The position numbers were made by a program, and so were the translations under genes. A stretch of DNA of 33,758 nucleotides from Thermoleophilaceae bacterium. Its GTDB lineage: Bacteria; Actinomycetota; Thermoleophilia; Solirubrobacterales; Thermoleophilaceae. A model generated the notes under the pieces. It was given only the letters and a program-made list of their open reading frames with translations, did no database searches and was not told the origin of the DNA. Shown in pieces: positions 18,739-21,466 of the stretch (its first letter is position 1; each line of letters opens with the position of its first letter). Location of the stretch: positions 1 through 33,758 of the forward strand of contig JAFGJG010000101.1 in assembly GCA_016929195.1 (NCBI GenBank), given 5' to 3'.

Positions 18739-18759
18739 ACATACTGTCTGTATGTTGAA
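18716..18759. promoter_or_regulatory. TetR-type operator and divergent promoters
   Basis: An inverted repeat ACATACA (18735-18741) and TGTATGT (18749-18755), with a 7-base spacer, is further matched by AC and GT inside the spacer. It has the size and sequence style of TetR-family operators. The plus-strand TATGTT (18751-18756), 12 nt before the GTG at 18769, overlaps its right arm. A TAGGGT box for tetR lies at 18721-18716, putting the operator over the tetR -35 region. Binding would block both directions. Confidence 0.65.
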
Positions 18760-18768
18760 TGACGAGTC

Positions 18769-19221
18769 GTGAGCGCGCAAGCCGTGGCCGCCCCGTCCGC
18801 AGCCGAGGAGCTCGTCGAGTTCTTCGCCGCGGGCTGGCGGATCGGCGCGCGGGACCCAGAGCGCTTCTACGCCCACTTCGGCTCCCGCTTGACGCCCGAC
18901 GCCCTGATGACGCAGCCGCTGGCCGCCCCCGTTCGCGGCCCCGGAGGCCTGCGCGAGCTGTTCGCGCCGCTCTTCGCCGCCATGCCCGACTTCACGGCCG
19001 ACGTGGTTCGCTGGGGAGCCACCGACGACGGCGTGCTGATCGAGATCCGCCTGCACGGCACGCTCGGGGGGAGGCCGGTCTCCTGGGAGGCGGTCGACCG
19101 CCTGGTCGTCTGCGACGGGTTGATCGCCGAGCGGCACTCGTACTTCGACCCGCTGCCCGTGGCGCTCAGGCTGATGCGCGCGCCGCGGTTGCTCTGGAAC
19201 ACCATGAGGAGGCGCATATGA
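18769..19221 (+). CDS. NTF2-like / SnoaL-like protein
   Basis: A 150-residue protein with the small cone-shaped NTF2-like fold signature. It has an N-terminal helix (SAAEELVEFFAAGWRIGARD), FYAHFGSRLTPDA, then strands with MPDFTADVVRWGATDDGVLI, IRLHGTLGGRPV, and WEAVDRLVVCDGLIAERHSY. Relatives act as isomerases or hydratases of polyketide or steroid-like substrates, or as ligand-binding proteins. Catalytic identity cannot be read here. The GTG start is close to a TATGTT box. Its stop overlaps the ATG of the next gene, so it is coupled to the alpha/beta hydrolase. Both are likely repressed by the divergent TetR protein. Confidence 0.8.
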   Translation: MSAQAVAAPSAAEELVEFFAAGWRIGARDPERFYAHFGSRLTPDALMTQPLAAPVRGPGGLRELFAPLFAAMPDFTADVVRWGATDDGVLIEIRLHGTLGGRPVSWEAVDRLVVCDGLIAERHSYFDPLPVALRLMRAPRLLWNTMRRRI

Positions 19222-20108
19222 GCAGCGCAGACAAGGCACGCTGGCGCGATCCGGCGCTGGGCACCGCCCGGACGCTCGACCTGTCGCAGGGCCCGCTCGA
19301 GGTCTTCGAGGCCGGCTCCGGGCCGCCGATCGTGTTCGTCCACGGAGTGCTCGTCAACGCGAACCTGTGGCGCAAGGTGATCGCGCGGCTGTCCGGCCGG
19401 TTCCGGTGCGTGGCGCTCGACATGCCGCTCGGCGCCCACCGCAGCCCGATCGGCGAGGGCGCGGACCTCAGCCCGCCGGCGCTGGCGGACCTGATCGCCG
19501 ATGCGCTGGAGGCGATGGGGCTCGAGGACGTGACCCTGGTCGGCAACGACTCGGGCGGCGCCCTGTGCCAGATGGTCGTCACGCGGCGCCCCGAGCGGAT
19601 CGGGCGGCTCGTGCTCACGTCGTGCGACTACCGCGACAACTTCCCACCGCCGATGTTCTCGTACTTCAAGCCGGCCGCGACGATCCCGGGGGCGTTCGCC
19701 GTGCTGCTCGCCCCGATGCGCTTCCGGGCGCCGCGCCGCCTGCCGTTCGCGCTCGGCTGGCTCACGAAGCGGCCGATCGACCGCGACGCCGAGGACTCGT
19801 ACGTCTTCCCCGCGCTGACCGACAGGCGCGTGGCGGCCGAGGTCAAGCGGTTCATCCGCGCCGGCGACAAGCGGCACACGAACGAGGCCGCCGACCGGCT
19901 CGGCACCTTCACCCGTCCCGCGCTGATCGCGTGGTCGCGCGAGGACCGCTTCTTCAAGCCCGAGCACGCCGAGCGGCTGGCGAAGGACCTGCCGTCCGCC
20001 CGGCTCGAGTGGATCGACGACGCCCGGACGTTCTCGTCCGAGGATCAGCCCGGCCGGCTGGCCGAGCTGATCTCCGGCTTCGTCCGCGAGCCGGTCCCCG
20101 CCGGCTGA
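19218..20108 (+). CDS. Alpha/beta hydrolase with Asp nucleophile and no obvious catalytic His
   Basis: A 296-residue alpha/beta hydrolase of the haloalkane dehalogenase/epoxide hydrolase type. The oxyanion motif is FVHGVLVNANLWRKV, and the nucleophile elbow is LVGNDSGGALCQ with Asp111. Near the C-terminus the usual GHF-like histidine motif before the EDQP segment is replaced by DDARTFSSEDQP (Thr271 where His is expected). It may act by a non-canonical mechanism, bind ligand only, or use another residue. The start ATG at 19218 has a strong AGGAGG 5 nt upstream and overlaps the stop of the NTF2-like gene. A 14-bp hairpin follows the stop. Confidence 0.85.
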   Translation: MSSADKARWRDPALGTARTLDLSQGPLEVFEAGSGPPIVFVHGVLVNANLWRKVIARLSGRFRCVALDMPLGAHRSPIGEGADLSPPALADLIADALEAMGLEDVTLVGNDSGGALCQMVVTRRPERIGRLVLTSCDYRDNFPPPMFSYFKPAATIPGAFAVLLAPMRFRAPRRLPFALGWLTKRPIDRDAEDSYVFPALTDRRVAAEVKRFIRAGDKRHTNEAADRLGTFTRPALIAWSREDRFFKPEHAERLAKDLPSARLEWIDDARTFSSEDQPGRLAELISGFVREPVPAG

Positions 20109-20122
20109 TTCAGCCCGACCCG

Positions 20123-20159
20123 TCCTGACTTGACCGCCCATATGCCGGTCAAGTCAGGA
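20123..20159. terminator. Long perfect hairpin after the hydrolase gene, probable bidirectional terminator
   Basis: TCCTGACTTGACCG (20123-20136) pairs perfectly with CGGTCAAGTCAGGA (20146-20159), 14 bp with a 9-nt loop. It starts 14 nt after the stop of the alpha/beta hydrolase and lies between convergent genes. There is no U-tract, as is common in high-GC actinobacteria. Function as a terminator is inferred. Confidence 0.55.
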
Positions 20160-20170
20160 ACCGCGGGAGG

Positions 20171-20302
20171 TCCGGGGGCGTGAGCCCCCGGCTGCCATCG
20201 ACCGGTCAGGGTGACACGGGGGTCCGGGGGCGTGAGCCCCCGGCTGCCATCGACCGGCCAGGGTGTCGCGGGGGTCCGGGGGCGCGAGCCCCCGGCTGCC
20301 AT
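20171..20302. repeat. Three tandem 52-bp units with GNRA-loop hairpins
   Basis: The unit repeats with a period of exactly 52 bases, starting at 20171, 20223 and 20275; the third copy is cut short next to the thiolase stop. Each unit opens with CCGGGGGC and GCCCCCGG, an 8-bp stem around a 4-base loop. The loop is GTGA in the first two units and GCGA in the third, both of the GNRA tetraloop class. The stem is followed by CTGCCATCGACCGG-like sequence. It lies between convergent genes with the 14-bp hairpin. It looks like an intergenic REP/BIME-like element; no coding function is evident. Confidence 0.8.
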
Positions 20303-21466
20303 CTAATTCAGGCGCTCGACGATCATCGCCTGGCCCTGGCCGCCGGCCACGCACATCGTCTCGAGCCCGATCGTCTTGTCGTCGGTCTCGAGCCCGTTAA
20401 GCAGCGTGGTCATGATGCGCGCGCCGGTCATCCCGAAGGGGTGCCCGAGGGCGATCGCGCCGCCGTGCGGGTTCATCTTCTCCAGGGGGATTCCGCAGAC
20501 GTCCATGATCGGGATGACCTGGGCGGCGAAGGCCTCGTTCAGCTCCACCGTGTCCACGTCCTCGATCGTCATCCCGGCGCGGTCGAGCACCTTCTTGATC
20601 GCCCCGATCGGGCCGACGCCCATCAGCTCGGGCTCGATCCCGGCCGTGGCGGCCGTGACGATGCGCGCGCGGGGCTCGAGGCCCAGCTCGGCGGCCTTCG
20701 TGTCCGACATGACGAGCACGGCGGCCGCGCCGTCGTTGAGCGGGCAGGAGTTGCCGGCGGTGACCTTGCCGCCCTCGCGGAAGGCGGGCTCGAGCTGGGA
20801 CAGCTTCTCGAGCGTCGAGCTGGCGCGCGGGCCGTCGTCCTTGGCGACCTCCGTGCCGTCCGGGAGCTTGACCGGCACGATCTCGCGGTCGAAGTAGCCC
20901 TCCTCCTGCGACTGCACTGCGAGCTCCTGGGAGCGCTGCGCGTACTTGTCCATGTCGGAGCGGCTGACCTCGTACTTCTCGGCCACGTTCTCGGCGGTCT
21001 CGCCCATGGCGATGTAGGCGTCCGGGTCGCCGTTCTTGCCCTGGAGGTGCTCGTTCTGGTCGGCCACACCGGCCGCCTCGCTGCGCTCGTTGTAGCGCGA
21101 GACCCACTCCACGCCGGCGGCGATGTAGGCGTCGCCCTGGCCCGCGGTGATCGCGTTGCCGGCGGCGCGGATCGACTCGAGGCTCGACGCGCAGTAGCGC
21201 GAGACCGTCACTCCGGTCACGCCGACCGGGAGCTTCTCGGACAGCAGCGAGATGATGCGGGCGATGTTGAAGGCCTGGAGGCCCTGCGGCATGCCGCAGC
21301 CGCAGTAGACGTCCTCGACGAGCGCCGGGTCCACGCCCGGGTTGCGCTCCAGCAGCTGGTCGACGACGTAGGCGCCCATCTCGTCCGGGCGGAGGGCGGC
21401 GAGGGAGCCCTTGAAGGCGCGCCCGATTGGCGTGCGCACGGCATCGACGATCACTGCTTCAGGCAT
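20303..21466 (-). CDS. Acetyl-CoA acetyltransferase / 3-ketoacyl-CoA thiolase
   Basis: A 387-residue thiolase catalysing CoA-dependent cleavage of 3-ketoacyl-CoA, or the reverse condensation. The nucleophilic Cys92 is in SRYCASSLESIRAAG. The C-terminal catalytic motifs are NPHGGAIALGHPFGMTGAR and ETMCVAGGQGQAMIVE with the second Cys. MPEAVIVDAVRTPIGRAFKG at the start and VELNEAFAAQ are also canonical. ATG at 21466 has AGGAG 8 nt upstream. It lies 40 nt after the SDR gene, which probably supplies the preceding step. The pair therefore looks like the end of a beta-oxidation route; chain length is not predictable. Confidence 0.93.
   Translation of the reverse strand: MPEAVIVDAVRTPIGRAFKGSLAALRPDEMGAYVVDQLLERNPGVDPALVEDVYCGCGMPQGLQAFNIARIISLLSEKLPVGVTGVTVSRYCASSLESIRAAGNAITAGQGDAYIAAGVEWVSRYNERSEAAGVADQNEHLQGKNGDPDAYIAMGETAENVAEKYEVSRSDMDKYAQRSQELAVQSQEEGYFDREIVPVKLPDGTEVAKDDGPRASSTLEKLSQLEPAFREGGKVTAGNSCPLNDGAAAVLVMSDTKAAELGLEPRARIVTAATAGIEPELMGVGPIGAIKKVLDRAGMTIEDVDTVELNEAFAAQVIPIMDVCGIPLEKMNPHGGAIALGHPFGMTGARIMTTLLNGLETDDKTIGLETMCVAGGQGQAMIVERLN

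What the first reader, a model, noticed from the sequence alone, without database searches (positions are those of the whole stretch)
20171..20302. 52-bp tandem repeats whose hairpin loops are all GNRA type
Three units with an exact 52-base period each carry an identical 8-bp stem. The loop varies between GTGA and GCGA yet stays a GNRA tetraloop, hinting at selection at RNA level. The sequence just before the first unit (CCGGTCAAGTCAGGAACCGCGGGAGG-like, from 20145 on) also resembles the repeat tail. This may be a lineage-specific REP/BIME-like family or a decoy, stabiliser or terminator array between convergent genes.
Basis: partly seen in the sequence, partly recalled or inferred. Interest (0 to 1): 0.55.

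Follow-up and report, generated by a model that had tools for sequence, protein, structure and literature searches.

The report
Repeat hairpins parked at gene ends
The three-copy repeat is one site of a family of about 40 G+C-rich hairpins scattered through this actinobacterial genome, many of them sitting right behind the stop codons of ordinary genes; it is a new family of a known kind of bacterial repeat (REP-like elements).

Summary
In detail: three units with an exact 52-bp period, each with an 8-bp stem and loop GTGA, GTGA or GCGA, between convergent hydrolase and thiolase genes. It is not a lone array. The hairpin occurs 40 times in this draft genome (0 in the reversed control), singly or in head-to-tail arrays with array-specific periods (45-57 bp). 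A unit model finds 41, 35, 23 and 10 copies in four genomes of one family and 2 in 57 other genomes. The element is polar: in 47 of 89 clusters its CTGCCATC end lies within -6..+19 nt of the stop codon of the gene reading towards it, against 5 of 712 control windows; the commonest gap is 6 nt, and the repeat then supplies part of the stop codon. 4 of 74 flanked clusters lie between divergent genes. Best reading: a REP/BIME-like dispersed palindrome family without a detected RAYT transposase, acting, if at all, as a hairpin at mRNA 3' ends. Loops are GNGA in 114 of 123 perfect-stem sites, never GNAA, and the adjacent gene's transcript reads UCNC, so GNRA selection is not established.

The parts
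20166..20217 (+). Unit 1 (52 nt); hairpin 20172-20191, loop GTGA
   Evidence: unit model R1 53.2 bits over 20142-20202
20218..20269 (+). Unit 2 (52 nt); hairpin 20224-20243, loop GTGA
   Evidence: R1 match 20194-20254
20270..20303 (+). Unit 3, ending in CTGCCATC; hairpin 20276-20295, loop GCGA; its last C is part of the thiolase stop codon (20303-20305)
   Evidence: best R1 match in the genome, 79.8 bits
20123..20159 (.). Perfect 14-bp inverted repeat TCCTGACTTGACCG / CGGTCAAGTCAGGA with a 9-nt centre; left part of a composite also seen at one other site in the genome (C47)
18759..20108 (+). Left neighbour, alpha/beta hydrolase (PF00561), stop codon 63 nt before the first hairpin stem
20303..21466 (-). 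Right neighbour, thiolase (PF00108, PF02803), stop codon TAG 7 nt from the last hairpin stem; Pfam C-terminal domain ends at residue 385 of 387

Best explanation
The array is one site of a lineage-specific, dispersed REP/BIME-like palindrome family. Shown: many near-identical copies, head-to-tail amplification inside arrays, a composite (palindrome plus array) present at two convergent-gene junctions, and a polarity in which the CTGCCATC end of the unit often lies directly behind the stop codon of the gene reading towards it. Inferred: copies spread by copying of the unit or composite and are kept where they do no harm or some good, i.e. just outside reading frames at gene 3' ends. There the hairpin (-18.1 kcal/mol in the gene-sense RNA) ends or protects the transcript, as a U-less terminator or exonuclease block, and, being 1-14 nt from the stop codon, could also slow terminating ribosomes as reported for E. 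coli REPs fewer than 16 nt away. The confidence given is for the family identity; for the action at mRNA 3' ends I would put about 0.45.
For: 40 exact hairpins, control 0; model R1 finds 41 in G000, 35 in G002, 23 in G018, 10 in G024, 1 each in G028 and G035, 0 in 55 other genomes. Antisense ORF scoring >= 25 with its stop within -6..+19 nt of the stem in 47 of 89 clusters versus 5 of 712 control windows. I scanned 18 of these 47 proteins: 18 of 18 match Pfam domains, e.g. thiolase, pyruvate kinase, MurG, FtsZ, FtsH, and in 8 of 18 the last domain ends within 9 residues of the C-terminus. Of 74 clusters with both neighbours called, 24 are convergent, 46 co-directional, 4 divergent; 44 of 53 right-hand antisense stops are 1-14 nt away, 14 of them exactly 6. 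Within-array identity 0.814 versus 0.686 between arrays, with array-specific periods. Same composite at C47 and in the window. The 60 nt after the stop folds at mean -30.2 (G000, n 8) and -32.5 kcal/mol (G018, n 17) for genes with an element, against -21.3 to -24.7 for the classes without. Stem pairs hold in 98.3% of cells in 79 distinct sequences, with 7 double-sided changes, 0 of 500 shuffles as high.
Against: No RNA data. No U-tract next to the stem on either strand (by reading). No Y1_Tnp (RAYT/IS200) protein found in G000 or in G002, G018, G024, G028, so the mobility mechanism is unknown. 42 of 89 clusters do not pass the stop-codon test (some run into contig ends); in G018 seven lie 7-27 nt upstream of a start codon. 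Genes beside the element are mostly not the same in different genomes: among 54 such proteins only the thiolase trio and one G018/G028 pair look orthologous. Genes of G000 without the element show no extra structure after the stop; in G018 the ten convergent ones with gaps >= 40 nt do somewhat (-24.5 against -20.6 inside the gene), and co-directional ones with short gaps slightly (-23.8 against -21.6). My gene calls used a home-made codon model, and let the result override it, which favours the pattern; at L053 and L087 a sense start codon 12-16 nt away competes with the antisense stop counted. All 7 double-sided stem changes lie in one pair, a count of pairs which 225 of 500 shuffles also reach, and the alignment was fitted to the structure.
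Confidence: 0.72

Rival explanations
1. Purely selfish or neutral repeats: the sequence spreads by an unknown transposase or by recombination and sits at gene ends only because insertions elsewhere are removed by selection. The hairpin has no function for the host.
For: Patchy distribution (0 copies in G001 of the same genus and in G003 of G018's genus); local tandem growth; composite copied to a second site; genes next to elements mostly differ between genomes; genes without the element show little or no extra post-stop structure.
Against: Neutral parking alone does not explain the polarity: the CTGCCATC end is 1-14 nt from the stop in 44 of 53 antisense right-hand genes, whereas left-hand sense genes stop 2 to 1490 nt away. 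Insertion specificity of the element could produce this without host function, so this rival is not excluded.
Confidence: 0.4
2. GNRA-tetraloop RNA elements: the loop is kept because a GNRA loop in the unit-sense RNA docks into a receptor or stabilises the hairpin.
For: GNGA in 114 of 123 perfect-stem sites of five genomes; second base is C, T, G or A in different genomes while the other three stay.
Against: Third base is always G in these loops, never A. In the transcript of the gene that ends about 6 nt away the loop is UCNC. G024 has copies with GCGAGA instead of GCGAG, and one G002 copy has GCGAA. No Rfam family at the array reaches its cut-off. In G018 an 11-bp alternative stem uses the same GAG.
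Confidence: 0.12
3. A dedicated family of bidirectional transcription terminators for convergent genes, selected at each site.
For: 24 of 74 flanked clusters lie between convergent genes and 4 between divergent ones. Three of 12 thiolase orthologues examined (G000, G002, G018) carry an element at the 3' end although G018's is of another type. U-less stem-loops are counted among transcript ends in Streptomyces (passages of PMC8269248), and clusters of hairpins have been proposed as terminators (passages of PMC8355165).
Against: 50 of 74 clusters are not between convergent genes; no U-tract; the other nine orthologues examined (G001, G003, G005, G008, G014, G019, G024, G025, G030) lack the family.
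Confidence: 0.3

Closest known systems
REP elements of the GTAG and CGTC superfamilies (Di Nocera 2013, PMC3733652; abstract, sections 6 and 15 and found passages seen)
   Same: Short dispersed palindromes (8-9-bp stems and 4-5-nt loops in CGTC families), intergenic, mostly between convergent or co-directional genes; convergent ones mostly <20 bp from ORF 3' ends; GTAG REP ends often provide the TAG stop codon; CGTC REPs lack a dedicated transposase.
   Different: No GTAG or CGTC unpaired tag next to the stem by inspection; head-to-tail tandem arrays of 45-57-bp units; about 40 copies per genome; the words 'actinobacteria' and 'thermoleophil' do not occur in that paper's main text.
E. [quoted passage not shown] the original study was not seen)
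   Same: Stable hairpin 1-15 nt behind the stop codon.
   Different: Different sequence; no translation data here.
RAYT-mobilised REP/BIME elements (PMC2817692, abstract seen)
   Same: Mosaic, tandem and inverted combinations of palindromic modules, as in G018.
   Different: No RAYT/Y1_Tnp gene detected.
Mycobacterial MIRU repeats (recalled, from no call)
   Same: Actinobacterial tandem intergenic repeats touching stop codons.
   Different: MIRUs are longer and partly coding; not compared by sequence.

Membership tests
REP-like elements, general definition (five criteria in the introduction of PMC12306157) | Extragenic location | tested here: met
   On the first gene of 69 clusters were overlapped by a predicted ORF; three of these (L040, L043, L072) have a Pfam-confirmed antisense gene ending at the repeat instead. 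The other five are unresolved.
REP-like elements, general definition (five criteria in the introduction of PMC12306157) | Palindromic stem-loop | tested here: met
   8-bp stem, 98.3% of cells paired in 79 distinct sequences.
REP-like elements, general definition (five criteria in the introduction of PMC12306157) | Short, similar, multiple copies per genome | tested here: met
   20-nt palindrome in a 45-57-nt unit, 40 exact copies of the core.
REP-like elements, general definition (five criteria in the introduction of PMC12306157) | Usually transcribed | not testable with these tools
   No transcriptome available.
GTAG/CGTC-tagged REPs | Unpaired GTAG or CGTC motif at one end of the palindrome | tested here: not met
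   Bases beside the stem are mostly GGGT or GGGC on one side and CTGC on the other; judged by inspection.
RAYT-mobilised REPs | RAYT (Y1_Tnp, PF01797) gene in the genome | tested here: not met
   0 matches in G000 (97.6% complete draft) and in G002, G018, G024, G028; 5 of 14 control genomes ring. All are drafts.
Intrinsic terminators | Stem-loop followed by U-tract | tested here: not met
   Sequence after the stem is CTGCCATC (unit sense) or ACCCCCGCG (gene sense). The U-less type is not excluded.
Rfam families | Score at or above a family's gathering cut-off | tested here: not met
   Two tRNAs only in 19 sources; best at the array is Acido-Lenti-1 at 18.7 bits against a cut-off of 37.
CRISPR array | Unique spacers between repeats | tested here: not met
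   The whole 52-nt unit is conserved (92% between units 1 and 2), including the part between hairpins.

The most novel reading that the evidence does not exclude
Portable gene ends: a mobile element whose terminus carries the sequence of a stop codon (TGA-TGGCAGCC-hairpin in gene sense) and which inserts into, or replaces, stop codons, so that it gives the recipient gene a ready-made stop codon plus 3' hairpin without any Y1-type transposase.
Probability: 0.15. Interest if true: 0.6.

Novelty: new member of a known kind. Interest (0 to 1): 0.38.

Why it matters
The REP families I read about are mainly proteobacterial (PMC3733652 abstract); this one is in Thermoleophilia, has no detected RAYT, and has a strict and polar placement at many stop codons, so it offers a natural set for asking whether hairpins just behind stop codons alter transcript ends or translation. 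It also warns that such arrays break short-read assemblies, since several contigs start or end inside them.

Tried and rejected
CRISPR: rejected, the spacer part is conserved. Coding repeat: periods 46, 52 and 100 are not multiples of three. Known RNA family: none. tRNA-associated element: ARAGORN finds no tRNA in L034. RAYT partner: none. A leaderless-promoter reading of the tail in G018 (TANNNT-like) was considered from the sequence and not pursued. The idea that a hairpin behind the stop is general in these genomes and that the repeat merely replaces it was tested and mostly not supported. A first frame-based strand call misassigned the window's own thiolase strand and was replaced. Literature searches: 0 papers; 15 listed of 4,302; 15 of 76; 4 of 4; 8 of 250; 8 of 50; 8 of 12; no title or abstract start in those listed rows describes a repeat family in Thermoleophilia. 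The library holds open-licence papers only, and the unlisted rows were not seen.

Full report
Observation. The window holds three units with an exact 52-bp period at 20166, 20218 and 20270. Each has the stem CCGGGGGC/GCCCCCGG and a loop GTGA, GTGA or GCGA. The array lies between an alpha/beta hydrolase ending at 20108 and a thiolase, on the other strand, ending at 20303. Before it lies a perfect 14-bp inverted repeat, 20123-20159.

Copy number. In the whole draft genome (3.46 Mb, 193 contigs) GGGGGCGNGAGCCCCC occurs 40 times, 0 in the reversed control. Copies are single or in head-to-tail arrays of 2-4; the spacing is array-specific: 45/46, 51, 52 or 57 bp, and 100 for one pair that has a further, imperfect copy between. 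Units of one array are more alike (mean identity 0.814, 30 pairs) than units of different arrays (0.686, 831 pairs), over 42 units in 22 arrays, as expected of local tandem duplication.

Distribution. A covariance model of the unit (R1) over 61 genomes at E <= 0.01 gives 41 copies in G000, 35 in G002 (same genus), 23 in G018, 10 in G024, 1 in G028, 1 in G035 and 0 in the other 55, among them G001 of the same genus, which is 84% complete. An even draw of 299 genomes of the class, with a stricter filter that found only 18 of the 41 in G000 itself, gives only G000 and G018; G002 and G024 do not appear in its match list. The other 19 stretches are single matches in other genomes; 18 lack the rest of the unit by inspection, and one, L162, is an Acidimicrobiia MAG contig that starts with a G018-type element.

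Longer form in G018. There the hairpin is the right end of a module series of about 145 nt: a hairpin with compensatory changes (TGG/CCA, CGG/CCG, TCG/CGA), a CCGTAGGGCAAG box, and the shared hairpin. Model R2 of this form finds 28 in G018, 2 in G028 and 0 in the other 59 genomes. Modules occur in tandem and in inverted pairs (L059, L069, L075), which is the BIME arrangement. RNAalifold prefers an 11-bp alternative stem that uses the GAG of the GNGA loop.

Polarity towards stop codons. I clustered the exact hairpins in the fetched loci (89 clusters in five genomes). In 47 of 89 (G000 15 of 26, G002 11 of 20, G018 17 of 35, G024 3 of 4, G028 1 of 4) a well-scored antisense ORF has its stop codon within -6..+19 nt of the end of the stem on the CTGCCATC side; eight offset windows per cluster gave 5 of 712. 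Three G000 clusters (L033, L035, L044) have that side at a contig end and could not show it. At L053 and L087 a sense gene starting 12-16 nt away is a competing call. I scanned 18 of the 47 proteins: 18 of 18 match Pfam families, and in 8 the last domain ends within 9 residues of the C-terminus (for example thiolase 385 of 387, pyruvate kinase 468 of 471, cytochrome c 227 of 229). With both sides called, 74 clusters are 24 convergent, 46 co-directional and 4 divergent (which lost one of the 89 clusters in its script and left out contig edges and unresolved sides). There 44 of 53 antisense right-hand stops are 1-14 nt away, 14 at exactly 6 nt; left-hand sense genes stop 2-1490 nt away. At 6 nt the unit end CTGCCATC(A) supplies the TC of TCA, i.e. 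TGA in gene sense. Against a pure 3'-end rule, seven of 13 sense right-hand genes in G018 have their start codon 7-27 nt from the hairpin.

Composite. The TCCTGACTTGACCG palindrome occurs at two places in G000, the window and C47, and in none of 30 relatives. Both copies are followed by an array of the 52-bp subtype (the first unit at C47 is partly missing) and both lie between convergent genes. This is the clearest sign of copying of a larger block.

Orthologous sites. Of 31 genomes with a thiolase match I looked at the 3' end in 12: G000, G002 and G018 carry an element, G018's being the other type, and G001, G003, G005, G008, G014, G019, G024, G025 and G030 do not. Some of the six folded 3' regions contain other strong hairpins (G024, G019, G001, no shuffle control). 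But in G000 genes without an element show no extra structure after the stop in any of four classes, and in G018 convergent genes with gaps >= 40 nt do somewhat (-24.5 against -20.6 kcal/mol inside the gene, n 10) and co-directional ones with short gaps slightly (-23.8 against -21.6, n 42), so I do not claim replacement of a conserved terminator. Beyond the thiolase, shared sites are rare: among 54 proteins next to elements, the only other orthologue-like pair is one of G018 and G028.

Loops. Perfect-stem sites with any loop number 123 in five genomes, 114 of them GNGA; the other nine include none with GNAA. Of 79 distinct R1 hits from G000, G002, G024 and G028, 63 have a tetraloop on a stem of at least 5 bp: GCGA 37, GTGA 22, GAGA 1, CGGA 1 and two artefacts of my hairpin picker; the other 16 are truncated or imperfect. 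G018 adds GGGA. So three loop bases are nearly fixed and the second is free. This is narrower than GNRA; the C/T change is a CpG transition; and the nearest gene's transcript reads UCNC. Fixed loop bases fit recent spread or DNA-level recognition as well as RNA selection. The stem is kept (98.3% of cells); the covariation score and the 7 double-sided changes exceed all 500 shuffles, but all seven lie in one pair, five of them C-G/G-C that may partly reflect alignment shift, and the alignment was fitted to the structure.

What it works like. Known REPs also lie mostly between convergent or co-directional genes, convergent ones mostly <20 bp from ORF ends, and GTAG REPs often supply the TAG stop (PMC3733652 section 15). 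E. [quoted passage not shown] The window hairpin is 7 nt from the thiolase stop. U-less stem-loops are among mapped transcript ends in Streptomyces (PMC8269248, passages). Hence my reading: a REP-like family, working if at all as a post-stop hairpin. Shown: anatomy, copy number, polarity. Inferred: mobility, effect on RNA or ribosomes.

What it is. It meets the testable parts of the general REP definition but lacks the GTAG/CGTC tag and a detectable RAYT, so it is not filed in those superfamilies. It is a new family of a known kind.

Noticed in passing
window 20123-20159 and G000 C47:16661-16689 (L195): Perfect 14-bp palindrome CCTGACTTGACCG..CGGTCAAGTCAGG, two copies in the genome, none in 30 relatives, each left of a 52-bp-period array between convergent genes.
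   Followed up: yes
L053, L059, L062, L063, L065, L067, L068, L070, L074, L075, L079, L080 (G018): About 145-nt structured element with a covarying GCGACC..GGTCGC hairpin and a CCGTAGGGCAAG box upstream of the shared hairpin; some right ends in G018 lie 7-27 nt before start codons with AT-richer tails such as CGTATAAC (L074) or TTAAATTC (L053).
   Followed up: partly
L162 positions 1-60: Contig of an Acidimicrobiia MAG (BS_bin.037) begins with a G018-type element: either transfer outside the class or a binning error.
   Followed up: no
G000 contigs C19, C121, C129, C132, C162, C183, C189, C36; G002 contigs C244, C323, C424: Contigs begin or end inside or within about 75 nt of the repeat, so the family breaks the assembly and its true copy number is probably higher.
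   Followed up: no
L122, L123, L124, L125, L126 (G024): Variant with an extra A (GCGAGA before CCCCC), which keeps a GGGGGTC..GACCCCC pairing in L122-L125, whose units are nearly alike.
   Followed up: no
L082 2488-2657 (G018): Three 75-bp head-to-tail units (GGAAACGGTCACGGGTGGCCGTAGGG..hairpin in the first two, diverged in the third) ending about 20 nt before a start codon.
   Followed up: no
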